DNA from: a virus
Length of the DNA stretch: 64,000 nt
Virus record (IMG/VR): IMGVR_UViG_3300032236_000443
Coordinates: 34,100-98,099 of that record
Direction: 5' to 3' (one strand)
Every line of letters starts with the position of its first letter. Positions within the stretch are counted from its first letter, which is position 1. The notes beneath the pieces are model-generated. The model worked only from the letters and a program-made list of their open reading frames with translations. It did no database searches and was not told the DNA's origin. This document shows positions 25,807-54,210 of this stretch, in pieces. The translations under genes were made by a program, and so were the position numbers.

Positions 25807-28134
25807 TTAGTTACCAAACTTTCTACGTACTGCAGCGATGACGGTTGTCAACACTAGGATTTTCTTTGCTTTCTTTCTTGTAACAGGAGACATGTCGTTA
25901 CCGATATTCGCCATAGCGACGAATGCGTGGTTTAATGCCTGTACACCAGGTACTGCTGCAATGGCGCCAGTAACTGGAGTTTCAATAACGGGTACTGCAA
26001 CGTCAGGTGCGTTAAATGTTGTACCGCCTGGTTGTCCGATAAATGTAGCCGCAACAGTGATTGCCTCTGGAGGAATAGGAAGTCCTGAACCTGGAGGTGG
26101 GGCTGGTGGAGTAAGTTTACCGTCTTCTCCAACTACCTGTGGCGCTGACTTTGTTCCAAAGAATTCAATGCCGCCGTTTTCAACTCCAGGCTTATCTACC
26201 TGAACGTGAGCGACTAACGCCTCTGCTGGAGCAACTTTAGGTGTAGTGTCTGATAATTGGTCAGGACTGTTAGATACAAGACCAGGAACTACTACAACAG
26301 GAGGTTGTGATGCAGGAGCAGGTGCGGGTTCTGGTGCAGTCGTTGGAGCAGGCGCAGGAGCGGGTTCAGGCGCTGGCACAGGAGCAGGTTCGGGTTTTGG
26401 GTCTGGTTGCGGCGCAGGTTGCGGGTCTGGTTGAGGTTGTGGGTCTGGCTGAGGTTGAGGCTGAGGTTGTGGGTCAGGAGCAGGTTGAGGTTGTGGGTCT
26501 GGTTCAGGCTGAGGAGCAGATTGAGGTTCTGGAGCCGTGGGCTGATTATCAGTTTGAGCACTCTGGTTGGCAGCCGCCTGAGCAGCGGCATCTGCTGCCG
26601 CCTTATCAGCAGCCGCTTTAGCAGCAGCGGCATCTGCAGCGGCCTTAGCATCTGCGATTGCCTTTGCAGCAGCAGCGTCAGCAGCAGCCTTTTCTGCAAT
26701 AGCGTTTTGAACTGTGGCTACTGCGTTATCTAACGCTTTTGCTGCATCATTTGCGGCTTGCTGTGCAACTGTTGCAGAATCATCTGCAGTAGCAAGGTCT
26801 GCGGTTGCAGTGTCTTGAACAACTTTGAGGACACCTTGTTGAGTGGTGAGGTTTTGCTGAGCAGTGGTGAGGTTTTGTTGGGCAATGGTGAGGTTTTCTT
26901 GTGCAGTAGTGAGGTTTTGCTGAGCATCTGCAACTGCTTGTTGAGCAGGTGGTATAGCCGCAATAGCATCAGCAGCCGCCTGCACTAACGCTGGGTCTTT
27001 AGTAGTAGTTGTTGTACCAAAAGCACTTGCTCCAGGAGTAGTGAAGTAACCTGTACCGTCTGCCCTAAAAATCATCCAACCAAGTGTGCAACTAGCACCA
27101 CCACCATTTTCGTAATACCAAATGATGAAGTCCTGTTGTTTGTCTGTTGTTGTGTTGTAGGTAGGTGAGTACTGACTCCAAGCAGTTCCTTGGTCTCTCC
27201 AATTATTTATTGCAAGAACACCGTCAATGTACATCTTAGAACCATCGTCAGATGAAACAGCGTACTTAACAGACACAGCGTCATTAGGGACAGTAATTGT
27301 TCCCTCGTATTTAACAATGACATGGTCTGATAGTCCAGAGTTAAGAATTTGACCACTTCCCCAGTTAGCGGCAATGTAGGGAAGAGTAAGTACCTCTACT
27401 GGAGTTTGGTTAGCAATTACTGGTGAAGAACCGTTCGTCGCACGATATACCGTTGCGGTTACTCCATTGGTGGTCACAGTCACTGTTGAGGAATCTGCCG
27501 CTGCTTGTGCTGCAGTTGCGGCATTTGTTACATCGCTCAATGTTTGTTGAGTTTGGGCAACTGTAACTGTGGCACCATCAACTGTTGATTGGGAAGAGGC
27601 TACTAATACGACGTTGTCTGAGACAACGGCAGTTGCCGAATCCACGCTAGATTGAGCAATTAGCACCAAAGCGGCTGAAACAGTGGCAGTTTCTAGGGCT
27701 TGTTGAGCAAGTTGAATCTTGGCTGCAGCGTCCTGTACGGCTACGGTAGCGCTATCTACAGCGGCTTGAGCCACGGGAAGTTCTGCAACTTTGGTCTGTA
27801 CATCAGGGATTGCCTGAAGAGTAGCGGTAGAGTTATCAACAGCAGTTTGCACTGTGGCTGTTGCTGTCTCTATCTTGGCTGCAACAGTCTCTAAAGTAAC
27901 GGAGGTAACCGTAGATGTATCAGACGATAAAGATGATTGGTTTGCTAATGGCGTGGCTAGTGATGGGTCTTGCGGTTGTACTACCACTTCTGTCGCTACT
28001 GAAGTAACGTCATCGGCTTGAGCAGTTTGCGCCAACGCTAAAGATAGGCAGAACAAAGCAGTTCCACCTAGACTTGCTTGTGTAATCCGTTTACGAACGT
28101 CAGATTGTGCTGCGAATGTACGCAGTGGTTTCAA
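25807..28134 (-). CDS. Secreted PA14-domain coiled-coil protein
   Basis: TTG 28134 is the start: GAGGGG lies 6 nt upstream and the next Met is far inside. The 775 residues begin with a signal peptide (hydrophobic to about 40, AQTAQA cut site). Next come an Ala/Thr/Val helical region, a PA14-like domain about 220-365 (VSSDDGSKMYIDGVLAINNW), a coiled coil with heptad QQNLTTAQ repeats, an Ala/Lys/Asp helix, and a PQPQPDPQ linker (about 530-620). The end (ILVLTTVIAAVRRKFGN) may be a weak anchor. PA14 domains usually bind glycans. Likely exported to the host surface or displayed on the virion. Confidence 0.75.
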   Translation of the reverse strand: MKPLRTFAAQSDVRKRITQASLGGTALFCLSLALAQTAQADDVTSVATEVVVQPQDPSLATPLANQSSLSSDTSTVTSVTLETVAAKIETATATVQTAVDNSTATLQAIPDVQTKVAELPVAQAAVDSATVAVQDAAAKIQLAQQALETATVSAALVLIAQSSVDSATAVVSDNVVLVASSQSTVDGATVTVAQTQQTLSDVTNAATAAQAAADSSTVTVTTNGVTATVYRATNGSSPVIANQTPVEVLTLPYIAANWGSGQILNSGLSDHVIVKYEGTITVPNDAVSVKYAVSSDDGSKMYIDGVLAINNWRDQGTAWSQYSPTYNTTTDKQQDFIIWYYENGGGASCTLGWMIFRADGTGYFTTPGASAFGTTTTTKDPALVQAAADAIAAIPPAQQAVADAQQNLTTAQENLTIAQQNLTTAQQNLTTQQGVLKVVQDTATADLATADDSATVAQQAANDAAKALDNAVATVQNAIAEKAAADAAAAKAIADAKAAADAAAAKAAADKAAADAAAQAAANQSAQTDNQPTAPEPQSAPQPEPDPQPQPAPDPQPQPQPQPDPQPQPDPQPAPQPDPKPEPAPVPAPEPAPAPAPTTAPEPAPAPASQPPVVVVPGLVSNSPDQLSDTTPKVAPAEALVAHVQVDKPGVENGGIEFFGTKSAPQVVGEDGKLTPPAPPPGSGLPIPPEAITVAATFIGQPGGTTFNAPDVAVPVIETPVTGAIAAVPGVQALNHAFVAMANIGNDMSPVTRKKAKKILVLTTVIAAVRRKFGN

Positions 28135-29325: not shown

Positions 29326-29502
29326 ATGCCTAAGTATCAATACGCTTGTATCAACTGCGATAAGGACTACGAAAAAGAGCGTAGCATCCACGATGCAGAA
29401 CCTAAGTATGTCTGCGACGATTGCGGCTACGCTCTTCAACGAGTCTTTACATCCTTTGGCCTTCAGTTCAAAGGCTCAGGATTTTACTCAACTGGAAATT
29501 AG
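29326..29502 (+). CDS. FmdB-like zinc ribbon protein
   Basis: This 58-residue protein starts MPKYQYACINCDKDYEKERS, carries the second pair in YVCDDCGYALQRVF and ends GLQFKGSGFYSTGN, the full signature of the FmdB/CxxC regulatory family (putative zinc ribbon). Such proteins are regulators or assembly factors in bacteria; the role in phages is unknown. It is one of two plus-strand genes within the minus-strand late region and has a leaderless-type promoter. Its stop overlaps the stop of 29499-29891. Confidence 0.85.
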   Translation: MPKYQYACINCDKDYEKERSIHDAEPKYVCDDCGYALQRVFTSFGLQFKGSGFYSTGN

Positions 29503-29891
29503 TTGTAGTTAGGGTCTGCAGGAACCTCTGGTTCTGCAGGTGCTGCTGGTGCAGCAGGTGTAACTACTGAAGTTCCACCTTGTGCTGAGATAACGATATC
29601 TTGACCAGTCTGCTTTGCTTCGACCTGTAGGTCTGCTGCAGTCTTGGAGTTAACATCAACTGCTGCAAATGCTGCGTTGATTTCATCCATGTCAAGTTTT
29701 CCGTCATTCATAAAGCCACGAGCAAGTTTCTCAACTACTGCGGCAACTGCGGTAAGTCCAGCAACTGAAACTGCTTTGACAACAGAGATACCTGCTACAG
29801 AACCAGCACCAATTACTGATAGGCCTGAAGCGGCAAACACTGCGACAATACGCAAAAGGATGTTGCCAAATAACTTAAGTCCGTCTTTCAT
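29499..29891 (-). CDS. Membrane protein, holin candidate
   Basis: This 130-residue protein has a hydrophobic region from about 9 to 55 (ILLRIVAVFAASGLSVIGAG; VSVAGLTAVAAVVEKLARGF), able to form two membrane helices. An EF-hand-like DGKLDMDEINAAF and a Pro/Ala-rich C-terminus follow. Actinophage holins often have this layout. It is coupled to 29888-30040 and lies about 1.8 kb downstream of the endolysin, so it is one of two holin candidates. Confidence 0.6.
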   Translation of the reverse strand: MKDGLKLFGNILLRIVAVFAASGLSVIGAGSVAGISVVKAVSVAGLTAVAAVVEKLARGFMNDGKLDMDEINAAFAAVDVNSKTAADLQVEAKQTGQDIVISAQGGTSVVTPAAPAAPAEPEVPADPNYN

Positions 29892-30040
29892 TCTTCTTTA
29901 CTCCGTTCGATAGATTTCCGAAGTTGTGTCGAACGGTCACGATTACGTTTTGTGCGCCTGTCATTGAATATGGGTGCAGTTTGATTAACCTTTACTTCAG
30001 CACGTGCTTGAACGTACTTAGGTTGTTTTGGTTTAGTCAT
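29888..30040 (-). CDS. Unknown 50-residue basic protein
   Basis: ATG 30040 to TGA 29888, with ATGA overlaps on both sides, encodes a strongly basic peptide (MTKPKQPKYVQARAEVKVNQ; then NDRRTKRNRDRSTQLRKSIE). The composition suggests nucleic-acid binding. No family recognised. The paired overlaps make it a likely real gene despite its size. Confidence 0.6.
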   Translation of the reverse strand: MTKPKQPKYVQARAEVKVNQTAPIFNDRRTKRNRDRSTQLRKSIERSKEE

Positions 30041-30399
30041 TTGACCCTCTTAGCCTTGATGCCCTCGCTACGTAACATTTTAACATTAGAAGGCTTATCG
30101 TCATAGGCTTTCTCAACCTTATATTTGCCCTTAATCTTCTTCTCGAACTGGTCTTTCTTTTCAACCGAGTCTTTGCGCTTATCACCTTTGGGACGCATGA
30201 TTAGAGCGTCGTCAGGGATATTGTTGCTTCTCAAGAAGTCTTTGGTGCTCTTACGCTGGTCTGAAGCACGGGAAGTAAGGACGAGAACTTTCTCGCCCTT
30301 CTTCTTGTCCTTGCGTGCTTTGTCAGCAATTGGCTTCTTTGTAAGAGTCTTATCTAAATCAAAGATTACTGCTTTAGGTTTAGAGGCCTTTTTCTTCAT
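30037..30399 (-). CDS. HAD-superfamily phosphatase
   Basis: This 120-residue protein has the HAD nucleophile motif FDLDKTLT (D14, D16), a second motif LVLTSRASDQRK near 38-50 and a third AYDDKPSNVKMLRSEGIK near 99-116. This is the layout of the phosphatase domain of polynucleotide kinase-phosphatase and related phage repair enzymes. It probably removes 3' phosphates from nucleic acid, but a small-molecule substrate cannot be excluded. No kinase domain is fused. It overlaps both neighbours. Confidence 0.8.
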   Translation of the reverse strand: MKKKASKPKAVIFDLDKTLTKKPIADKARKDKKKGEKVLVLTSRASDQRKSTKDFLRSNNIPDDALIMRPKGDKRKDSVEKKDQFEKKIKGKYKVEKAYDDKPSNVKMLRSEGIKAKRVK

Positions 30400-30719
30400 T
30401 ACTCAAGTATGACGCCATTTTCAGGATTCGTCTCAAGAACCGATGGGTCAACCCCACGAATGACGACAGTAGTAAGTGGAACACCAGACTGAACAACAGC
30501 ACTAAGACGATGCTGTCCGTTAAGGAGTCGTCCGTTTGAATCGAAGATGAGGGCTTTTCCATTGAGCCTCCATTTTCCATCCTGCATCTCGTTCTTGTAA
30601 GCATCAACTTTCTTCTGCTTTATTTTTCGGTGCATAGCGTTGTTAGTTAGATACGCTTGTGCTTCTTCTGGGTTAATTACGTCTACTGTAACTGTTAGTC
30701 CGAAATCTTCTGGATTCAT
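30399..30719 (-). CDS. ParB/sulfiredoxin-like nuclease domain protein
   Basis: This 106-residue protein has a helical part (RKIKQKKVDAYKNEMQDGKW) and then LNGKALIFDSNGRLLNGQHR and LSAVVQSGVPLTTVVIRGV. NGQHRLSA is the hallmark of the ParB N-terminal/Srx fold. Stand-alone copies are common in actinophages and may be nucleases or NTP-binding proteins. No HTH domain follows, so it is not a full ParB. Confidence 0.8.
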   Translation of the reverse strand: MNPEDFGLTVTVDVINPEEAQAYLTNNAMHRKIKQKKVDAYKNEMQDGKWRLNGKALIFDSNGRLLNGQHRLSAVVQSGVPLTTVVIRGVDPSVLETNPENGVILE

Positions 30720-31025
30720 TTAGTCTGCCTGTATTCCCATCGCTTCTAGGTATGCGTCTTTTTCTGCCATTAGGAACGTCTCGATTTCACTTTGACGTTC
30801 TTTAATCATTTCTTCTGTTTTAGTAATCACTTCTTCTTCTAATTCTTCCTTGTGTTCGCTGTACTGCTCTACTGCGTAGTCCAATACTGATTGAAAACCA
30901 GCAGCCTTAATCTGAGCATTTGTCCAACGCTCTTCTGCTGCATGGCGCTTTTTTTCTAGAATAGTCTCTAGTTGAAGGGCTTTGCGCTCTTCTATCTTCT
31001 TCTGACGATTTGATGTGTATTCCAT
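30720..31025 (-). CDS. Coiled-coil protein
   Basis: This 101-residue protein is Glu/Lys-rich and almost wholly helical (RQKKIEERKALQLETILEKK; EEVITKTEEMIKERQSEIET). It lies between the ParB-like gene and the proteasome-like gene with a 17-nt gap to the latter. It could be an adaptor or partner of either neighbour, but no direct evidence shows this. Confidence 0.6.
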   Translation of the reverse strand: MEYTSNRQKKIEERKALQLETILEKKRHAAEERWTNAQIKAAGFQSVLDYAVEQYSEHKEELEEEVITKTEEMIKERQSEIETFLMAEKDAYLEAMGIQAD

Positions 31026-31042: not shown

Positions 31043-31594
31043 TTACTTGTATTGCTCCATAGTTAGTAAAGGTCCTGATGAGTAGACACTAAACTTAATT
31101 GCGGCTTCTACCGCTTCTTCAGGGGTAGCACCCATGTACAAAGCGCCCAATGCGTACTCTGCCCCAGAACCTACGGCATACCAATTCTCATCGGTACGGC
31201 AGACTGAGAGGTCATCGCCAATATCAAAGAGTTCTCCACCTACTGCGATGAGGAAGTGGAAGCGTTGTTCTCCGTCATCCTTACCTTCACCCTTACTTTC
31301 GTTGAAGTCATAACCATTATCGGTTAAACACTTTCTCATAGAAGGCATAGCCTTAGTAATGATAAAGTGATAAATGTCTTTTTTAGCAGTTGCAGTTAAC
31401 TTAGGTGGATTCCAGAAGTGCTGGACGATATCGCACGGACTTACCTCACCACTGCCTGCAATTATGAAGTCGCCTCTTTCAGCAATCTTCTTCATGTCAG
31501 GATGGTTGAAACGGCGACCATGCTCATCAGTTACTTGGTTATCAGCAACAATGACGCATTTATCTGTGTATTGCACTCCAACGATTGTGGTCAT
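31043..31594 (-). CDS. HslV/proteasome-beta-like Ntn hydrolase
   Basis: This 183-residue protein starts at ATG 31594 with AAGGAGCGG upstream. Removal of Met would expose Thr1 of TTIVGVQY; Asp17 is exactly where HslV has it (VIVADNQVT), and Lys34/35 (DMKKIAE) and an AVGSGAEYALGALYMGAT segment near 143-160 follow. The end has AVEAAIKFSVYSSG. The build equals HslV, a threonine protease that forms hexameric rings, without a propeptide. No HslU or Mpa ATPase is adjacent. Possible roles are capsid protein maturation or degradation of host proteins. Confidence 0.85.
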   Translation of the reverse strand: MTTIVGVQYTDKCVIVADNQVTDEHGRRFNHPDMKKIAERGDFIIAGSGEVSPCDIVQHFWNPPKLTATAKKDIYHFIITKAMPSMRKCLTDNGYDFNESKGEGKDDGEQRFHFLIAVGGELFDIGDDLSVCRTDENWYAVGSGAEYALGALYMGATPEEAVEAAIKFSVYSSGPLLTMEQYK

Positions 31595-31661: not shown

Positions 31662-32474
31662 TTAGTCCAAATGCTTCATAATCTCTGTCCAAGTAGCAGG
31701 ACCTACGATTCCGTTAGAATCTAGGTGGTCATGGCTGTCTTGGATAGCAATAATCGCTTTTTTTGTGGCGGGACCGTAGTCGCCGTCAGCATCAAGGTCA
31801 AGCGCTTGCTGAATCAACTTAACGCCATCGTTCTTATCGCCAGGCTTAATTTGACCTGGGAATGGTGGAACTGCCTTTGGAGCAGCAGGAGTTGCTGGGT
31901 GTGAGTCTGTGGCAGCGTCAGCATAGTCTGGGCGGCCGAATCCGACGATAGAAGCCCAGAGGTGACGCTTGTTATCCACCTTGTAGCCACGGACGTTCAT
32001 AGCGCATTCTCCGCCGTTATTAGGGGAACCCTTTGGCTTTGAGTCAGGAGTGGTGTTTCCTTCTACAGTTGTGACTGTGCCGTCTCCATTGTCCTTGACT
32101 ACGATGCCAACGTGCTGGATTGGGCTAGAAGGAAGTGCATGAGGGATAAATGAGAAGTAAACCAAGTCTCCTGGTTGTGGGTGAGCAACTGCTGCGTCTG
32201 CCCACTTGCCAGCCTTCTTAAATGCTGCAGCACCTGTTGGGGTGTAAACAGTGTTAGGAATCTTTACGCCAGCCTTGTTAGCGCACCACATCATGAGCGA
32301 ACCGCACCATGCTTGGAAATTAGCGCCAGTGAAAGCGCCGTAGATTGTCTCGTTGTCCTTTGGACCTTCGATAACGCCAACCTGTGACTTAGCAACTTCG
32401 AGCATACGTGCTGCTGTACCTGGTTGTGCGGTTGTTACTGGAGGAACTGGATTTCCTACATTACCTAATGCCAT
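31662..32474 (-). CDS. Endolysin: CHAP plus peptidoglycan-binding domain
   Basis: This 270-residue protein lyses the cell wall at the end of infection. The N-terminal CHAP domain has Cys57 (FQAWCGSLMMWC) and His121 (SPIQHVGIVVKDNGDGT), the expected catalytic pair, with TTVEGNT close behind. An Ala/Pro-rich linker near 190-208 leads to a PG_binding_1 domain (QIKPGDKNDGVKLIQQALDL; ends GIVGPATWTEIMKHLD). There is no signal peptide, so export depends on a holin; candidates are at 25627-25806 and 29499-29891. Confidence 0.9.
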   Translation of the reverse strand: MALGNVGNPVPPVTTAQPGTAARMLEVAKSQVGVIEGPKDNETIYGAFTGANFQAWCGSLMMWCANKAGVKIPNTVYTPTGAAAFKKAGKWADAAVAHPQPGDLVYFSFIPHALPSSPIQHVGIVVKDNGDGTVTTVEGNTTPDSKPKGSPNNGGECAMNVRGYKVDNKRHLWASIVGFGRPDYADAATDSHPATPAAPKAVPPFPGQIKPGDKNDGVKLIQQALDLDADGDYGPATKKAIIAIQDSHDHLDSNGIVGPATWTEIMKHLD

Positions 32475-36407: not shown

Positions 36408-36511
36408 TTGGTGTCCTTGCATCGTGGGCACTGCTTTGTGGGATTTGGTGTGCCGTCAGGGACGATGAACATCCCCCCGCACTTGTAACACAAGACTGTG
36501 AGGGTACTCAT
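36404..36511 (-). CDS. 35-residue rubredoxin-like zinc ribbon
   Basis: ATG 36511 to TGA 36404, with ATGA overlaps on both sides. The protein is little more than two CxxC knuckles (VLCYKCGGMFIVPDG, KQCPRCKDTK) 20 residues apart, a minimal zinc ribbon. It is directly coupled to WhiB (36508-36753), so it may work with that regulator; this is only inference. Confidence 0.7.
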   Translation of the reverse strand: MSTLTVLCYKCGGMFIVPDGTPNPTKQCPRCKDTK

Positions 36512-36753
36512 GCTGCGCTCCTTTGGTAACGTGGTCGGTGTTTCCAGATTCTTCTCTGCTTATCATTCATGCCACCCCAGATACCGTGGATGATGTTGTT
36601 ATCTATTGCGTATGTCAGACAGTCAAGTTGTACTGGGCATCCCATACATGTCTTCTTGGCGTACTCCGCCGTATCACCTTGTTCTGGAAAGAATGCATCT
36701 CCATCCGTTCCTGCACAACTAGCCTCTGCCATCCACTCTGGCGAGTTCCCCAT
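36508..36753 (-). CDS. whiB: WhiB-family transcription regulator
   Basis: This 81-residue protein has the four Fe-S cysteines in standard spacing, C13, C36, C39 and C45 (KTCMGCPVQLDCLTYA), then the GIWGGMNDKQRR motif and a basic RPRYQRSAA end that can bind DNA. WhiB proteins occur almost only in Actinobacteria and their phages and act with sigma-A; phage copies can inhibit host WhiB. It heads the run of small genes on the left of the control region behind AAGGGGGG. Confidence 0.93.
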   Translation of the reverse strand: MGNSPEWMAEASCAGTDGDAFFPEQGDTAEYAKKTCMGCPVQLDCLTYAIDNNIIHGIWGGMNDKQRRIWKHRPRYQRSAA

Positions 36754-39708: not shown

Positions 39709-41028
39709 ATGTCATACGCAATTCTTATTACTGGTGAAACTTCGGTAGCAGATACTCTCGTACAAATTCTTATCGCCAATCACAACGGAAGCAATCACGC
39801 ATGGACACGAACAACAAATGGTGGTCGTGGTGAAGCGAACGCATGGTTCGACAATGACTATGCAGATGTAATTGCAACTGCAAATGTCACACATATTGTT
39901 GGTGAAGTTCTTTCATCACCACTTACTGATGTTGATGTAAGTGCAATCGAGAATGGAGAGCGACCAACAGTTCTCATTCAGAAACTTACAAAGCAGTTTG
40001 GTTTGCGACATAAGAATGTTGATACAAATAAAACTATTGCTGATGTATTAGTTGAGGTTGATACCATTCTAAAGAACAATCCAAATGATTTAGACAAGTA
40101 TCGTTCAGACGGAAGGAAGGATAAAAGCGTGACCGCAACAAAAACTTTCACACCAACAACGCAGACACCTGCACCACTAATCAAAGTAGAACGAGCAGAG
40201 CCAACAAGTGAAGTAATCGGTAACTACTCAATCAATGTACCTACTAAAGAACAAATCGGTCACTACATAGAGCGCACTCTTATCGGTGGCGTTAATGAAG
40301 TGACAATGTATGACACCGCAAAGAAGTTGAAACTCAATGTTCTTTTAGAAGGCGGTGCAGGTAGTGGTAAGACTTCATCACCAATCAACTATGGATACAA
40401 GCGCAATCAAGGCGTTGTTGTTGTATCAATGTCTGCTGGTATCGAAGTCGGTCACTTCGTAGGCAAGACAATCATTAAGAACAATGGAGAAGTCGGTTGG
40501 GTTGATGGCGTACTTGTTCAATCAATGAAGCGTGGTGACATTCTTGTTATTGATGAACTTGATTTCGCAACGCCAAAGATTATGCAACGACTACAAGATG
40601 TTCTTGCTAATCGCACTCTCACACTTGTTGAGAATGAAGGCGAGGTCATTCATGCACACCCCGACTTCCTTGTTGTTGCAACTTACAACAACGGATACCG
40701 AGGTTCGCAGAAGGTCAATCAAGCAGTTCTTGACCGCTTTAAGATTAAGTTGATGTTCGACTATGACAACACAATCGAGAAGCAACTAATCAAATCACCA
40801 ACACTTCTAACTCTCGCAGAACAAATGCGTGCAGACAGTATTGCTGGTATCTATGAAACACCAATCTCACTTCGCTTGTTGCTTGCGTTCCAAGAACTTA
40901 CAAGCGAAATCAACTACGAGTTCGCAGTAGAGAACTTCTTAATGGGCTTTACTACTGATGAACGAGCAAGTGTGAAACTTCTTTTAGAAGCACACCGCTA
41001 CAACTTGGAAGCAGAACTAACAAAGTAA
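39709..41028 (+). CDS. MoxR/CobS-like AAA+ ATPase
   Basis: In this 439-residue protein, residues 1-130 form a separate N-terminal domain (VLIQKLTKQFGLRHK near 88-102), then a Thr/Pro linker. The AAA+ core has Walker A GGAGSGKT (215-222), Walker B ILVIDELD (278-285), a sensor asparagine in VVATYNNGY and an arginine finger in AVLDRFK (R343). This matches MoxR and CobS. These ATPases work with VWA partners as chaperones or metal chelatases; the partner is the next gene. Confidence 0.88.
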   Translation: MSYAILITGETSVADTLVQILIANHNGSNHAWTRTTNGGRGEANAWFDNDYADVIATANVTHIVGEVLSSPLTDVDVSAIENGERPTVLIQKLTKQFGLRHKNVDTNKTIADVLVEVDTILKNNPNDLDKYRSDGRKDKSVTATKTFTPTTQTPAPLIKVERAEPTSEVIGNYSINVPTKEQIGHYIERTLIGGVNEVTMYDTAKKLKLNVLLEGGAGSGKTSSPINYGYKRNQGVVVVSMSAGIEVGHFVGKTIIKNNGEVGWVDGVLVQSMKRGDILVIDELDFATPKIMQRLQDVLANRTLTLVENEGEVIHAHPDFLVVATYNNGYRGSQKVNQAVLDRFKIKLMFDYDNTIEKQLIKSPTLLTLAEQMRADSIAGIYETPISLRLLLAFQELTSEINYEFAVENFLMGFTTDERASVKLLLEAHRYNLEAELTK

Positions 41029-41068
41029 TCCGCAACAAAAATTCGCACACCAACTAGAGAGGGAACAA

Positions 41069-43090
41069 ATGACAACAGTAATTCCTAACTTCTTGCAAGA
41101 GAAGTCTGATGTTGCAAAGCAAGCAGAACAACAGAAGCGCAATCGTCTTAATGGACTTGCAAATGTATTCGCTAGAGCCAATAGCGTTCTTACTGGTCGC
41201 AAGGTAAGTGTCAATGTTGTATCCAAGCCCGATTACAAAGCACCTGCTTGGTCTAGCACAACAGAAGTGTGGCTTAATCTTGCAGAGATTAAAGATGACT
41301 TCTCTGCAAGAAGTTTGGTATCTCATCAAGGTCTTAACTTCCATGAGTTGTCACACCTTCTTTACACACCTCGTAATGGTCATGCACTTGTTAAGTGGGT
41401 TAAAGAAAATAACTATTGGGAAGTATTCAATGCGCTAGAGGATAGTCGTATTGAGAACTTGCTAGTTGGTTACCTTCCAACAACTGCAAATTGGCTTACT
41501 GCAACAATCGCTGATTACTTAATGTCAGACCCAAGTGCAATCGAAACTGCATTACCACTTGTTGCTGGTCGTAAGTATCTGCCAATCGAAGTGCAACAAC
41601 TTGCAGTTGATAACTACAAGTTGCCCGAACAAATTGATGAGATTTATTCAATCGTTAATGAATATATCGGATTAATTTTCGAGGGTGGTTCTGCAAGTGC
41701 TGATGATGTTGAGAAGGCAAAGCAGTGCATTATTGACTTCTCAAATCTAATCAATCAACTTCCACCACTTCCAAATAACGGCGGTAGTGGCGAGGGCGAA
41801 GGTGAAGGCGAAGTTACAACAGTTGTCTATCGCATTAAAAACCCTAATGGTCACAACAACCGACCAGTTGAAGGTTGGGAGAGCAGTAGCGCACGCCCTA
41901 AGAAGCGTGCAGACCAAGAGCGTGACCGCAACAATTCGCCAGAGTGCCCACCAAGAGTGAAGCGAAATGTAAAAGTTGTTGATGTTGAAACAGAAGCAGA
42001 CATTCCCGATACTTCTAAAGAAGGTTCATCAACAACACCAAGCAACAACAAATCAGATGACAAGTCAGATGACAATTCAGAAAGCAACGAAGTTGCGTTT
42101 GATGAATTGCAGTTTGATGATACCGAGTTTGATGATGATGACTTCGACTTCGGTGATGATTACTCAGAAGCAGGTTCTAAAGAAGTTGTGGGCAATCAAA
42201 GCGGAACAACTGGTGACAACAATCAAGTCACAGATGTTCTCAATGATGTTCTCAATGATGTTGTTAAAGAACTTGCTAAAGAAGTTAATCAAATTGCAAA
42301 GCAGTTAGGTATATCTATTGACCTTGACGGCGGTAATGCAATCACACCAAAGAAGGCTAGTTACAACGAAGTTAATTGCCCTGCTGATTTAGTTCTACTT
42401 GCTAAGTCATTCGGTAAAGAGTTAGAGCGTTTGCGTGCTAACTACGAACCTGCATGGGAGAACGAGGTTGATACTGGTCGCTTGAATGTCAATCGTTATC
42501 TACAAGGCGAGGACTTCGATACTTGTTTTGATGAGTGGCACGAAGGCAAGTCTGATGTAACTGCAATCGAAGCAGTTATTCTTTTAGACAAGTCGGGTTC
42601 AATGTCGGGTCGTAATGCTGACGAAGCATACAAATCAATGTACGCAATCAAGAAGGCGTTAGAGAATGTCGAAGCACGCACAAGCGTTGTTCTTTTCGAT
42701 TACTCAACAACACTTCTTTATGGTGCAGATGAGAAGGCTGGTACAACAATTCGTGACGGCGGTGCGAGTGGTGGTACTAATCCCGAACAAGCAATTCTCT
42801 ATGCAAAGCGTGTCCTTGCTGAAACCGATAAGCCAATCAAAGTTCTATTCATGATTACTGACGGCGCATGGGATACCAAAGTTGGTGAGGAAGCAATCGT
42901 TGAAATGCGTAACGCTGGTGTTCTTACTTGCCAAGCATACTTATCACAGTATGACGAACGAGCAGAGAGCGTTGAGAGTTATCGCCACTCATTCGAGTTG
43001 CTTACTCAGATTAAGTCTGCAAAAGACATTCTCACACTAGGCAAAGACTTAGTGCGACTTGCAATCAATCGCAATCTAGTAGTTCGCTAA
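41069..43090 (+). CDS. CobT-like VWA protein with HExxH motif
   Basis: This 673-residue protein has an N-terminal metallopeptidase-like domain with HELSH (92-96) and ALEDSRIE (122-129), a pattern found in CobT and VWA-like predicted metallopeptidases. A long acidic linker (about 330-395, Asp/Glu/Ser-rich) follows, then a VWA domain from about 501 with MIDAS residues D507-S509-S511, T570 and D598 all present. It is the natural partner of the upstream AAA+ ATPase. Substrate unknown; cobalt insertion and chaperoning are the main alternatives. Confidence 0.85.
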   Translation: MTTVIPNFLQEKSDVAKQAEQQKRNRLNGLANVFARANSVLTGRKVSVNVVSKPDYKAPAWSSTTEVWLNLAEIKDDFSARSLVSHQGLNFHELSHLLYTPRNGHALVKWVKENNYWEVFNALEDSRIENLLVGYLPTTANWLTATIADYLMSDPSAIETALPLVAGRKYLPIEVQQLAVDNYKLPEQIDEIYSIVNEYIGLIFEGGSASADDVEKAKQCIIDFSNLINQLPPLPNNGGSGEGEGEGEVTTVVYRIKNPNGHNNRPVEGWESSSARPKKRADQERDRNNSPECPPRVKRNVKVVDVETEADIPDTSKEGSSTTPSNNKSDDKSDDNSESNEVAFDELQFDDTEFDDDDFDFGDDYSEAGSKEVVGNQSGTTGDNNQVTDVLNDVLNDVVKELAKEVNQIAKQLGISIDLDGGNAITPKKASYNEVNCPADLVLLAKSFGKELERLRANYEPAWENEVDTGRLNVNRYLQGEDFDTCFDEWHEGKSDVTAIEAVILLDKSGSMSGRNADEAYKSMYAIKKALENVEARTSVVLFDYSTTLLYGADEKAGTTIRDGGASGGTNPEQAILYAKRVLAETDKPIKVLFMITDGAWDTKVGEEAIVEMRNAGVLTCQAYLSQYDERAESVESYRHSFELLTQIKSAKDILTLGKDLVRLAINRNLVVR

Positions 43091-47747: not shown

Positions 47748-47787
47748 GGGGGGTAGGTTGCCAATCGGCAATCTGCCCCCCTTTTTT
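47748..47787 (+). terminator. Strong intrinsic terminator of early operon
   Basis: A 15-bp stem (GGGGGGTAGGTTGCC paired with GGCAATCTGCCCCCC through two G-U pairs, 4-nt loop) followed by TTTTTT. This separates the early operon from the integrase unit. Confidence 0.93.
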
Positions 47788-47791
47788 GCAT

Positions 47792-47820
47792 TTGCTAAGT
47801 TACTCACTAGTAGGTATTGT
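47792..47820 (+). promoter_or_regulatory. Integrase promoter
   Basis: TTGCTA and TATTGT are separated by exactly 17 bp, immediately after the early terminator and 28 bp before the integrase ATG. This fits a vegetative-sigma promoter and implies separate control of the integrase. Confidence 0.55.
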
Positions 47821-47848
47821 TCTATCCCTAGCCGAGAGGGGCAGAACA

Positions 47849-49177
47849 ATGGCGTATGTAATCAAGCGCAACGGGCGTTATACGGGCTATTACCGCAACG
47901 CAGACACAGGCAAAGCAAAGTCAGTAGGAACTTTCCCAAGCAGGGCTAAGGCTCTCAATGCTGGTCTGCTGGCAGAGGAAGGCGAACTCTTAACCCTGCC
48001 CGAATACCAAGACACAGTAGCAAAATATGTTGAACAACTTATGAAACGAACTGATGTCCGACTAAGTACCAAAAGACATTACTCAATCCTTCTAAAGAAG
48101 TATGCCCTACCTGCTATCGGCAGCAAGAAGATAACGAGCATAAAGAAGCAAGACATACGCAAGATGTTTGATACCTTGCAAAGCGAAGGCATAAGCCCTT
48201 CCACTATCTCCCACCTCAAGACGGCGTTAGGTTACCTATTTAGGCAAGCCGTAGATGATGAGGTAATCCCAACCAATCCCACGCACCGCATAAAGACCCC
48301 CTTGTCAAAGCCCGACCCTACATACACACTAGAAGCAAAAGACTTTAGCCTTATCCTAAAGAACTTACCCACAGACGGCTCACGCTTATTTGCCAGATTT
48401 CTCATAGGTTCTGGGTTGCGATATGGAGAAGCAACAGAACTACGGGTTAAAGACTTTAACTTTCAATCAAAAGAAGTCTATGTTCGCAGAAGCGTAAGTG
48501 ATGTTGGTAAAGAATTAAACAATGGAGAAAGGTTCTTAGTAGTGCCCGCCACAAAAAATGGGCGAAAGCGCACAGTAACCATAAGCACAAGCCTCATAGC
48601 GGAAGTAAAAGCCTTTGTCAAAGCAAAAGACCTATCAAAAGACGACTTAATCTTCTCGAAGCACCTCGTCTTAGATGGGGGTAGAATAAATGTCCCAAGC
48701 GAAAGCAAGGGAAAGCAAAAGCCTTACACGAAGGGAAGCAGAATATTCCAACACGCCACAGCGTATTCATACAATGTGGGTGGGTGTAGGTGTAATCAAT
48801 GCAAGCAAGCGGTTAAGGAATACCGCAGTCAATACAGAAAGGAGAAAGGCAAGGTAGAAAGCCCTAGCCAAAGCAAAAGCCTTAGCAAAAGCGAAAGCAA
48901 TAGCAAAAGCCTTAGCAGAAGCGAGAGTCATCTACCTCGTGACAGGTGGAGAATCACTTGGAACGGCGCCATAACCAAGTCAGGTATTGGCTGGTATCCC
49001 AAGACGCACGACTTACGGCACGCTAACGCCACACTTCTTTTGAAGGGTGGGGTAGATGTTCACGAAGTCAAAGAGCGTCTAGGTCATCAGTCAATCACAA
49101 CGACGGAAAGGTATCTGCACCGAATTCGTCACCAGCAGTCAGAGGCAGCCGAGGTTGTCAATGGCTATTTGGAGTGA
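47849..49177 (+). CDS. int: Tyrosine integrase with unusual insertion
   Basis: ATG 47849 (MAYVIKRNGR, 442 aa) follows AGAGGGG by 8 nt. It has an N-terminal arm-binding-like part, a core-binding domain about 55-145, and catalytic residues R191 (GSGLRYGEATEL), K236, H387/R390 (THDLRH), H413 and Y422 (TTTERY). All are present, so it should be active in site-specific recombination. Residues about 295-365 are an insertion with a GGCRCNQCKQ zinc-like motif and a Ser/Lys/Glu repeat. No excisionase or attachment site is recognised. Confidence 0.93.
   Translation: MAYVIKRNGRYTGYYRNADTGKAKSVGTFPSRAKALNAGLLAEEGELLTLPEYQDTVAKYVEQLMKRTDVRLSTKRHYSILLKKYALPAIGSKKITSIKKQDIRKMFDTLQSEGISPSTISHLKTALGYLFRQAVDDEVIPTNPTHRIKTPLSKPDPTYTLEAKDFSLILKNLPTDGSRLFARFLIGSGLRYGEATELRVKDFNFQSKEVYVRRSVSDVGKELNNGERFLVVPATKNGRKRTVTISTSLIAEVKAFVKAKDLSKDDLIFSKHLVLDGGRINVPSESKGKQKPYTKGSRIFQHATAYSYNVGGCRCNQCKQAVKEYRSQYRKEKGKVESPSQSKSLSKSESNSKSLSRSESHLPRDRWRITWNGAITKSGIGWYPKTHDLRHANATLLLKGGVDVHEVKERLGHQSITTTERYLHRIRHQQSEAAEVVNGYLE
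48872..48927 (+). repeat. Two 26-bp direct repeats inside integrase
   Basis: Units starting AGCAAAAGCCTTAGC at 48872 and 48902, 30 bp apart, differ at two positions and encode the KSLSKSES/KSLSRSES peptide repeat. Similar AGCAAAAGC words recur to about 49890. Confidence 0.75.
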
Positions 49178-49180
49178 AAG

Positions 49181-49801
49181 ATGAAACTAACAAAGAAAGC
49201 ACGAGTGTTCTTAGGAACTCTCACAACAATGCCTTTCTTGGCGGCTTTACTAATAGGGTTTGCAGCCCCAGCAGTAGCCCCAAGCAAAGCAGAAGCACAA
49301 ACGCTAGCCCTAAGAAAGTACCAGAATGAAGCGGTTCTTCCAGCGAAGGACTTAGTCGGACTTTTGAGTATCGTAGGCTTTAAGGGAGAACACCTTAAAG
49401 AAGCATGGGCAATAGCGATGAAAGAATCACATGGAAACGCTCTCGATTACAATGGCAATGTCCATACAGGAGATAACTCCTATGGCTTGTTCCAAGTAAA
49501 TATGTTGGGTCAAATGGGACCCGATAGACGAGCCCAATTCGGTTTAGCATACAACGCTGAACTGCTTAACCCTGTGAAGAATGCCCAAGTTGCTTATTAC
49601 ATGAGCGGTGCAGGCAAAAATTGGAGTGCATGGAAGGGCGTTCACACGCCAGTAGTCAAATACTGGCTAGCGAAGTACCCATACAAGGCACACACTCAGG
49701 CAAACAAAGCCGTAGCAAAAGCAAAGGTCAAAATCAAAGCGGTTGGTTCTAAGACCAAAGCAGTCCGTAAGATAAAGCCTAAGCAAAAGCCAAAGCAATA
49801 G
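49181..49801 (+). CDS. Secreted lysozyme-like transglycosylase
   Basis: This 206-residue protein has a signal peptide (MKLTKKARVFLGTLTTMPFL; hydrophobic to about 32; cut after SKAEA). The domain from about 70 shows E82 in AWAIAMKESHGNALDYNG, then DNSYGLFQVNMLGQMG and AYYMSGAGKNWSAWKG, the pattern of soluble lytic transglycosylases. The C-terminus is Lys-rich. It follows the integrase by 3 bp with GGAG inside the integrase end, so the two are coexpressed. A role in DNA entry, lysis or lysogenic conversion is possible. Confidence 0.85.
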   Translation: MKLTKKARVFLGTLTTMPFLAALLIGFAAPAVAPSKAEAQTLALRKYQNEAVLPAKDLVGLLSIVGFKGEHLKEAWAIAMKESHGNALDYNGNVHTGDNSYGLFQVNMLGQMGPDRRAQFGLAYNAELLNPVKNAQVAYYMSGAGKNWSAWKGVHTPVVKYWLAKYPYKAHTQANKAVAKAKVKIKAVGSKTKAVRKIKPKQKPKQ

Positions 49802-52704: not shown

Positions 52705-54210
52705 TTATTCTTCTATAGAAGTCTGAATAATCTTAGTAACGGCGTCTTCCTTTAGAGCCTCTGGCAGTTCTCGAAGTGCTTGTGCCCTGTCTCCAAAGAT
52801 GGCAGAGAGAACTCCACCTGACGATTGACGGCTGGCAGTAATCTGAATGAACTCTTTATTCTGGTCCATCTCGTTGACGTTGCCCACCAGTTTTAGGAGT
52901 CGGTCAATTTCTTGGGAAAGGTTAGGGTCTGCGTATCCACCGTTCATTTCTTCAGCAAAACGCATAAAAGCAACTCTTTGGCCCTGCATTTCAATGATTG
53001 CAGTAAGTAACGCCTTCAACTGTTCTTTAGTCTTTACCTCAACTGGAAGGTTAAAGGCGCACATGTTTGAGGGCTTGAAGGCTGGGCAGTTCGCTGCAAC
53101 AAAGCAGGTATCGCATTGGCGAAGAGAAGAAGACTGGTTGTTGATGACGGGAACTTCTTTAAGGACATCACGACCATTGTCGTCTTGCTCGACTACCGTC
53201 TTCATCTTGTACCCAAAAACAGGTAGGTTTTGTATCTCTTCTGGCGCTCTTTGGACTAGTTCAGTGGGCTCTTTTTTCCGCATCTCAACATCACTGTTAT
53301 CAGAAAGGTACCCCCCTAATTCCCCTAAACCTGATAGTAGAGGGGTATCGCTGTTATCAGATACTTGGGAGTTTTTACCGCCCTCAATGATGTGTAAGTC
53401 AGGTGTCTTCTTGTCCATGGATGCCTCTAGTTTCTTGTATGACCAGACTGCCACTCTAGTGGCTTCTAACGTACTATCTTGGCTAAACGCCGAATAGTCC
53501 AGTCCTGCCTTCTCCACTACGGACTTGTAGCGGGGTCTTGCTTGGTCCTTCATCTTCTTTGGGTAACGTACTAACTTGGTGCCATCCCAGATGATTGTCT
53601 CGCCTCGGCGCATGGGGGATAGCCACGACAATGTGCTGGCAGTCGTAAATGGTACCTGCCGTAGGTTGTCGGGCTTGGCGCAGGCAAGGGCGTGGAACCG
53701 TGTTCCATACTGGCGCTCATACGACCTTGTAAGGGCTGAGAGGCTGGTTACAGACTCAATCTCAGCGTTGGGTATGACCACGTTCTGATGGGCCTCACAG
53801 AGGGCTTTGAGGGCTGGTAAGCCGTACTCCTCATGCCAGACCACCCATAACTTAGGGTCGTTCTCGAAGAAGGGGCGTTGGGCTTCTACCCAGTTCTTTC
53901 CTAGAACTAGGGAGTCGAACTCTGTAAATGCCAGGGCCCTGTCAGCATTGTTCACCAGGAACTCCTGGTACTCAGCGGCTAAAGAAGTTAGTTCTTCTTT
54001 AGATAGCCCAGCCTTATCTGCCTGGGCCGCTCCAGACTCAATGACAACCAGGGTATCTGAGTCGAAATGCTCAGAGATGAGCCAGTTCTTATTCTTGGGC
54101 AAACCTCTTTTGCGTAACCCCCAAAAGTTGAGTCCCATCAACTCAACTTTCTGACCCTCTAGGAGGGTACGGTTACTTCCAACTTCGGCGCCACTAAAGA
54201 TGATTCTCAT
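52705..54210 (-). CDS. TGT/DpdA-like TIM-barrel protein with Cys cluster
   Basis: In this 501-residue protein, residues 1-240 look like a TIM barrel: VVIESGAAQADK near 55-67, LVLGKNWVEAQRPF, FHALACAKPDNLRQVPF and TTASTLSWLSP near 170-200. The order resembles phage tRNA-guanine-transglycosylase paralogs (DpdA) that insert deazaguanine into DNA. The C-terminal half has QCDTCFVAANCPAFKPSNMC, a four-Cys metal site, then helices. No queuosine-precursor genes are in the window. The TGT link is from pattern only. Confidence 0.55.
   Translation of the reverse strand: MRIIFSGAEVGSNRTLLEGQKVELMGLNFWGLRKRGLPKNKNWLISEHFDSDTLVVIESGAAQADKAGLSKEELTSLAAEYQEFLVNNADRALAFTEFDSLVLGKNWVEAQRPFFENDPKLWVVWHEEYGLPALKALCEAHQNVVIPNAEIESVTSLSALTRSYERQYGTRFHALACAKPDNLRQVPFTTASTLSWLSPMRRGETIIWDGTKLVRYPKKMKDQARPRYKSVVEKAGLDYSAFSQDSTLEATRVAVWSYKKLEASMDKKTPDLHIIEGGKNSQVSDNSDTPLLSGLGELGGYLSDNSDVEMRKKEPTELVQRAPEEIQNLPVFGYKMKTVVEQDDNGRDVLKEVPVINNQSSSLRQCDTCFVAANCPAFKPSNMCAFNLPVEVKTKEQLKALLTAIIEMQGQRVAFMRFAEEMNGGYADPNLSQEIDRLLKLVGNVNEMDQNKEFIQITASRQSSGGVLSAIFGDRAQALRELPEALKEDAVTKIIQTSIEE

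What the first reader, a model, noticed from the sequence alone, without database searches (positions are those of the whole stretch)
31043..31594. Phage-encoded HslV/proteasome-beta homolog without an unfoldase
Thr1 and Asp17 of HslV are at the same positions after Met removal, there is no propeptide, and no HslU, ClpX or Mpa gene is near. It is read just after the endolysin and no prohead protease is visible near the capsid. It could mature virion proteins or redirect host proteolysis.
Basis: partly seen in the sequence, partly recalled or inferred. Interest (0 to 1): 0.8.

Follow-up and report, generated by a model that had tools for sequence, protein, structure and literature searches.

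The report
Phage proteasome-like peptidase with conserved neighbour
A virus of freshwater actinobacteria carries a real relative of the proteasome's cutting subunit; such genes are already known in phages, but here it sits beside a new small helical gene that was never seen without it, and close relatives have swapped in a very different peptidase of the same kind at exactly this spot.

Summary
The ORF at 31043-31594 lies on the minus strand, 183 aa. It is a genuine proteasome-fold protein: PHROG 1040 'peptidase HslV family' E=2e-33; AlphaFold pLDDT 89; best fold match the bacterial homolog BPH, then HslV. Thr1, Asp17 and the Lys33 equivalent are invariant in 81 close relatives and in a 31-protein diverse set. 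dN/dS is 0.06-0.10; no propeptide. It is not HslV proper (18 bits against a cut-off of 158) but one of the 'group I' proteasome homologs already reported from phages (Fuchs, Alva and Lupas 2021). The kind is known; its function is not. A capsid-maturation role is poorly supported. No HslU is encoded, but a CobS-type AAA+ lies 8 kb away. New here: the next gene (30720-31025), a helical hairpin ending in GIQxD, matches none of 50,697 phage records. Searched on its own in IMG/VR, it has an HslV-type gene upstream in 78 of 80 contigs; the other two are cut at a contig end. In a sibling phage the HslV gene alone is replaced by a 37%-identical HslV of another subfamily, flanking DNA staying 78-83% identical to the gene borders. 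Most likely a self-compartmentalising threonine peptidase with a helical co-factor.

The parts
31043..31594 (-). HslV/proteasome-type N-terminal-Thr peptidase homolog, 183 aa
31589..31591 (-). Thr1 nucleophile codon (residue 2 of the ORF, after Met)
   Evidence: position; invariant 81/81 and 31/31
31541..31543 (-). Asp17 codon
   Evidence: invariant
31487..31489 (-). Lys35 codon (Lys33 equivalent)
   Evidence: invariant
31262..31318 (-). Low-confidence charged loop between helix 2 and the next strand (pore-loop position), rich in Asp/Glu
   Evidence: pLDDT about 48; 5-7 acidic residues, net charge -2 to -5 in 81 relatives
31163..31171 (-). GSG motif (Ser129-region equivalent)
30720..31025 (-). 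101-aa helical-hairpin protein with conserved C-terminal GIQxD; putative co-factor of the peptidase
31662..32474 (-). Endolysin (CHAP/NlpC-P60 plus peptidoglycan-binding domain), directly upstream
30399..30719 (-). ParB-like small protein, downstream neighbour
30037..30399 (-). HAD/polynucleotide-kinase-phosphatase-like protein, downstream neighbour
29499..29891 (-). Conserved hydrophobic (holin-like?) protein, used as an HslV-independent probe of this phage group
   Evidence: the holin assignment is inference
39709..41028 (+). CobS-like AAA_5 ATPase (considered and rejected as a dedicated unfoldase)
41069..43090 (+). CobT-like VWA protein next to the AAA_5 ATPase

Best explanation
The gene encodes a catalytically competent N-terminal-threonine peptidase of the proteasome-like family (group I). 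Removal of Met exposes Thr1 directly, so no propeptide processing is needed. Like BPH it most likely forms a closed homo-oligomeric double ring with inward-facing active sites and a charged pore loop, and works without an AAA+ unfoldase of its own on unstructured proteins or peptides during infection. In this phage group it is one half of a two-gene accessory module: the helical protein encoded just downstream is most likely its co-factor (adaptor, activator or assembly partner), perhaps docking through its conserved C-terminal GIQxD tail. Shown by sequence or computation: family, fold, intact active site, purifying selection, absence of HslU/ClpP, co-conservation with the helical gene, gene-precise swap. 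Inferred: ring assembly, proteolytic activity, physical interaction, role in infection.
For: PHROG 1040 E=2.2e-33 and Pfam Proteasome. AlphaFold pLDDT 89 with BPH as top fold and sequence relative. Thr1/Asp17/Lys invariant 81/81 and 31/31. dN/dS 0.06-0.10. Long Asp/Glu-rich pore-position loop, the feature described for unfoldase-independent BPH (PMC5777263). No HslU over cut-off in the homolog-bearing phage records searched. hslU over cut-off in only 1 of 199 genomes of the phylum of Streptomyces halstedii, so host HslU is an unlikely partner. The helical gene has an HslV-type gene upstream in 78/80 contigs, the other two being contig ends. It also lies beside a divergent HslV subfamily in 11 contigs. 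In-place swap with DNA identity of 83% and 78% ending 18 nt before and resuming 4 nt after the gene. Presence of the helical gene requires at least 6 changes on the tree of that second subfamily.
Against: No activity, oligomer or interaction was measured. BPH itself showed no activity on standard substrates (PMC5777263). Synteny around the helical gene is generally conserved (endolysin 48/52 against HslV 52/52), so part of the linkage is shared ancestry. HslV homologs occur without the helical gene in most lineages (67 of 78 scorable second-subfamily contigs and 16 window-type contigs). The helical protein has no significant structural match, and a minority of its members lack the GIQxD end.
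Confidence: 0.58

Rival explanations
1. It plugs into a host AAA+ unfoldase (ClpX, ClpC, ARC/Mpa) and redirects host proteolysis.
For: Host unfoldases are available: ClpX-like HslU relatives were found in all 199 genomes sampled. Accessory gene in an actinophage carrying WhiB.
Against: Per PMC11953334, ARC/Mpa dock through GQYL tails into alpha-subunit pockets, which a beta-only protein lacks. No docking feature was tested. Relatives occur in phages of very different hosts.
Confidence: 0.13
2. It is a capsid or scaffold maturation protease.
For: No S78 or ClpP-type prohead protease found in the record.
Against: LuckySocke has a 62%-identical capsid protein, the same head gene order and no HslV homolog. 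Homologs elsewhere lie in early or DNA-metabolism regions. DSL-LC01 has an S78 match as well. Of 58 contigs sampled with the holin-like gene, 34 lack the gene locally. Many phages need no head protease (general knowledge).
Confidence: 0.06
3. It keeps the Ntn active site but is not a peptidase: a ligase (as connectase), amidase or other hydrolase.
For: The proteasome-like family includes the monomeric ligase connectase (PMC8665760); BPH was inactive on model substrates.
Against: All proteasome catalytic residues are conserved; no connectase-type insertion in the model.
Confidence: 0.12
4. The CobS/CobT-like AAA+/VWA pair at 39709-43090 is its unfoldase.
For: Related AAA+/VWA pairs occur in the same phage group: G000 and four of five relatives tested.
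Against: This AAA+ is common in phages of Staphylococcus, Synechococcus, Listeria and Gordonia, a spread largely unlike that of the HslV homologs. It lies 8 kb away in a separate operon on the opposite strand. The subtype is not a known HslV or proteasome partner (general knowledge).
Confidence: 0.04
5. The helical neighbour is only a syntenic passenger with no link to the peptidase.
For: The endolysin is nearly as constant a neighbour (48/52); most HslV homologs of the second subfamily lack the helical gene.
Against: It stays with HslV-type genes of two subfamilies about 37% identical and in two different upstream contexts; never found without HslV where sequence suffices; at least 6 changes on the second subfamily's tree.
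Confidence: 0.4

Closest known systems
PHROG 1040 'peptidase HslV family' (phage annotation family)
   Same: Full-length match, E=2.2e-33; the same family is annotated in Jerseyvirus, Phapecoctavirus, Epseptimavirus and others
   Different: An annotation family only; it gives no function and no partner gene
[quoted passage not shown]
   Same: Phage-borne, group I, no AAA+ partner; GSGxxYALGAL..GATPEEA motif shared with phAPEC8, Ent1 and CcrBL9 homologs (that these are PPH is inferred from length and motif)
   Different: Not about 140 aa and has a long second helix (70-92); grouping with these members p-AU 0.09
[quoted passage not shown]
   Same: Similar length and active site; rhizobial and Streptomyces plasmid homologs are about 27-31% identical (calling these AAH is inferred)
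   Different: Those homologs form a 100/100 clade that leaves the window family outside; a sister relation is not rejected (p-AU 0.41)
BPH (5ovs, 5ovt, 5ovu)
   Same: Best solved sequence and fold relative; Asp/Glu-rich pore loop; no unfoldase
   Different: About 20-24% identity in the fold alignment; separate, well supported branch
HslV (HslVU)
   Same: Fold, Thr1, Asp17, Lys, GSG
   Different: 18 bits against a cut-off of 157.75; no HslU; long pore loop
Bpa/PafE, ATP-independent proteasome activator (analogy for the neighbour only)
   Same: All-helical protein with a flexible tail and a conserved extreme C-terminal motif, a working analogy
   Different: Two-helix hairpin instead of four-helix bundle, GIQxD instead of GQYL, Bpa not among the listed structural matches

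Membership tests
Proteasome-like (T1/PF00227) superfamily | Recognisable family profile and proteasome fold | tested here: met
   PF00227 24.0 bits against cut-off 22.4; pLDDT 89, Foldseek to BPH/HslV/20S beta
Proteasome-like (T1/PF00227) superfamily | Thr1/Ser1, Asp17, Lys33 catalytic residues | tested here: met
   invariant 81/81 and 31/31
Proteasome-like (T1/PF00227) superfamily | Closed oligomeric ring and peptidase activity | not testable with these tools
   needs expression, EM and assays
HslV | Curated HslV family cut-off | tested here: not met
   TIGR03692 18.3 against 157.75; NF003964 19.3 against 137
HslV | Partner ATPase HslU in the same genome | tested here: not met
   AAA_2 not over cut-off in G000; no hslU match in five other phage records searched, four of them with homologs
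20S proteasome beta | Curated beta-subunit cut-off and alpha partner | tested here: not met
   TIGR03634 26 against 224, TIGR03690 14.7 against 191.9; no second match to this protein in the record; alpha subunit not searched separately
PPH (Fuchs 2021) | About 140 residues, lacks helix H2 | tested here: not met
   183 aa with helix 70-92
PPH (Fuchs 2021) | Phage-borne group I homolog clustering with PPH | tested here: inconclusive
   tree unresolved; p-AU 0.09 for joining the presumed members; reference alignments not held here
AAH (Fuchs 2021) | Clusters with actinobacterial/alpha-proteobacterial homologs | tested here: inconclusive
   outside a 100/100 clade, sister relation not rejected p-AU 0.41
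CPH (Fuchs 2021) | Clusters with the cyanobacterial homolog | not testable with these tools
BPH | Groups with BPH sequences | tested here: not met
   the two BPH rows form their own 99/96 pair apart from the window family
BPH | Elongated acidic pore loop, no unfoldase | tested here: met
   14-21 residue segment with 5-7 Asp/Glu, net -2 to -5, milder than BPH's run of five; no HslU
Phage prohead protease (S77/S78/ClpP-like) | Profile match or position in the head cluster | tested here: not met
   different fold; about 10 kb of other genes between it and terminase/portal/capsid

The most novel reading that the evidence does not exclude
The phage carries a two-gene, ATP-independent proteasome: an interchangeable group I Thr peptidase plus a dedicated helical activator or adaptor that docks through its C-terminal GIQxD tail, an independent analogue of Bpa/11S activation, with whole peptidase genes exchanged between phages at one fixed slot.
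Probability: 0.2. Interest if true: 0.8.

Novelty: new member of a known kind. Interest (0 to 1): 0.47.

Why it matters
Phage proteasome homologs have been listed since 2021 with no function, partner or genomic-context clue (PMC8665760). A conserved neighbour and a gene-precise exchange between two subfamilies give a concrete handle: which proteins a phage proteasome cuts, and whether a phage has its own unfoldase-free activator. The paper also found no actinobacterial phage with AAH; here, phages of one actinophage group carry three different HslV-type subfamilies, one of them AAH-like.

Tried and rejected
Virion maturation protease. CobS-like AAA+ as partner. True HslV. LuckySocke 'peptidase' gp42 as a missed homolog: a different protein. 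Direct lysis function from adjacency to the endolysin: adjacent or close in the window clade, Ent1 and phAPEC8, but not in DSL-LC01, Hum25, CcrBL9, Tunturi_5, D'Alembert and most others, so treated as position, not function. Recurrent neighbourhood to thyA/DHFR/RNR/MazG/PhoH in other phages was seen but not tested against a baseline and does not apply to the window. S77 prohead search uninformative. Helical neighbour: Pfam Tox-PLDMTX hit below cut-off treated as chance; no significant fold match. Literature searches for phage HslV function found only the 2021 survey and annotation mentions.

Full report
What is there. The window is positions 34100-98099 of a 98,099-base IMG/VR virus record. 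The ORF is on the minus strand at 31043-31594, 183 aa, starting M-TTIVGVQYTDKCVIVADNQVTD, with a good ribosome-binding site. After Met, Thr is residue 1 and Asp residue 17; the Lys33 equivalent is Lys35. It matches PHROG 1040 'peptidase HslV family' at 2.2e-33 over nearly its whole length and Pfam Proteasome above the gathering score. It fails the curated HslV, archaeal beta and bacterial beta cut-offs by a wide margin. A profile of 31 relatives finds BPH first among solved structures (7e-10), then HslV and 20S beta subunits. AlphaFold gives pLDDT 89, and Foldseek again puts BPH first (3.4e-11), then HslV.

Is it a working enzyme? By sequence, yes. Thr1, Asp17, Lys35 and the GSG motif are invariant in 81 close relatives. 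Thr1, Asp17 and Lys are invariant in 31 diverse proteins from phages, Streptomyces, Actinomadura, rhizobial and Bacillus plasmids. dN/dS against the window gene is 0.06-0.10. In the diverse set the Thr directly follows the start codon, so there is no propeptide. The segment at the pore-loop position is long and rich in Asp/Glu (14-21 residues, net charge -2 to -5) and poorly ordered in the model. An elongated acidic pore loop and lack of an unfoldase are the described features of BPH (PMC5777263). That paper also found no activity on standard substrates, so activity here is an inference.

Whose virus? A WhiB gene and a capsid protein 60-62% identical to Streptomyces phages such as BRock and LuckySocke point to an actinobacterial host. 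Many relatives are IMG/VR contigs; that they come mainly from fresh water is my reading, not a tool result.

Known kind. Fuchs, Alva and Lupas (PMC8665760) described group I homologs PPH, AAH and CPH in phages, without context or function. My tree puts the window family in its own clade (98/98), outside the 100/100 clade of homologs from Streptomyces, rhizobia, T5-like and Firmicute phages, which I take to be AAH. Joining the two as sisters is not rejected (p-AU 0.41), and joining presumed PPH members is borderline (0.09). By length and helix 2 it is not a typical PPH. CPH could not be tested. I therefore call it a new member of a known kind.

What it is not. Virion maturation: LuckySocke has the same terminase-portal-scaffold-capsid order and no homolog. 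Other phages keep the gene among accessory or DNA-metabolism genes. DSL-LC01 has an S78 match as well. Of 58 contigs of this phage group sampled through another gene, 34 have no HslV-type gene nearby, so it is accessory. HslU partner: none encoded, and hslU passes its cut-off in 1 of 199 genomes of the phylum of Streptomyces halstedii. The phage's CobS-like AAA+ (39709-41028) is not specific to HslV carriers.

The neighbour. Directly downstream (17-nt gap in the window; start and stop overlapping in some relatives) is a 101-aa protein. AlphaFold predicts a helical hairpin, pLDDT 92.5, with a loose tail. The last residues are GIQxD in 66 and G-x-x-x-D in 74 of 80 members. It matches no phage record of 50,697, no PHROG family, no Pfam family above cut-off and no PDB fold significantly. 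Searching IMG/VR with this gene alone gave 80 contigs. In 78 an HslV-type gene lies upstream on the same strand, 63 of them within 400 nt; the other two contigs end too close to tell. In the HslV-independent sample of 58 contigs, it occurs in 16 with and 0 without HslV; that contrast is partly a clade effect, because gene order differs between the two groups. General synteny is also high (endolysin 48/52).

The swap. In contig L128 the HslV gene is only 37% identical to the window's and belongs to a second subfamily related to DSL-LC01. The endolysin (92%), helical protein (79%) and ParB-like protein (88%) are conserved. DNA identity of 83% stops 18 nt before the HslV start and resumes at 78% four nt after its stop. 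L141 shows the same arrangement with lower identity. The helical gene stands beside this second subfamily in 11 contigs, some with quite different upstream genes, and its presence needs at least 6 changes on that subfamily's tree. Such a clean exchange suggests that the activity, rather than one particular protein, is kept at this position, and that the helical protein tolerates either enzyme.

Mechanism. Shown by sequence or computation: fold, active site, constraint, operon, lack of HslU/ClpP, linkage, swap. Inferred: Thr1-dependent ring peptidase acting on unstructured polypeptides during infection, helped by the helical protein, possibly through its tail as GQYL tails do for Mpa and Bpa (PMC11953334). 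I put the peptidase-plus-co-factor model at about 0.58 and the specific tail-docking activator at about 0.2.

Limits. The virus record may be incomplete, contigs are not independent samples, some gene calls are mechanical, and no interaction or activity was measured.

Noticed in passing
L092:8001-8546 (Sinorhizobium fredii pSfreGR64b): A proteasome homolog of the AAH-like clade lies between nifQ and a nif/fix cluster (iscA-like, nifU-like, nifS, homocitrate synthase, nifW, fixAB) on a symbiotic plasmid; homologs occur on many rhizobial plasmids.
   Followed up: partly
L115, L116, L119, L121, L123, L093, L084, L071: In unrelated phages the HslV homolog is often near thymidylate synthase, DHFR, ribonucleotide reductase, MazG or PhoH genes; not tested against a baseline.
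   Followed up: partly
L165:7794-8348, L166, L200:8975-9541, L205: AAH-like (MTCIV...) homologs at another position in phages of the same group, so three HslV-type subfamilies circulate there.
   Followed up: partly
window 25807-28134 (-): 775-aa probably secreted protein with a PA14 domain and long Pro/Gln/Ala repeats, between the lysis region and the head genes.
   Followed up: no
window 39709-43090 (+): CobS-like AAA_5 ATPase and CobT-like VWA pair, widespread in large phages, function unknown.
   Followed up: partly
window 47786-49801 (+): Tyrosine integrase followed by a secreted SLT lysozyme-like protein, suggesting a temperate history.
   Followed up: no
window 36508-36753 (-); 52705-54210 (-): WhiB regulator and a queuine tRNA-ribosyltransferase-like protein (possible DNA modification).
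   Followed up: no
L061:625-1209 and 2264-2857: Two HslV-type copies facing each other on one short contig; possibly an assembly artefact.
   Followed up: no
L092:1-2422: Multiubiquitin, ThiF and Mov34/JAB genes close to the proteasome homolog on the rhizobial plasmid.
   Followed up: no
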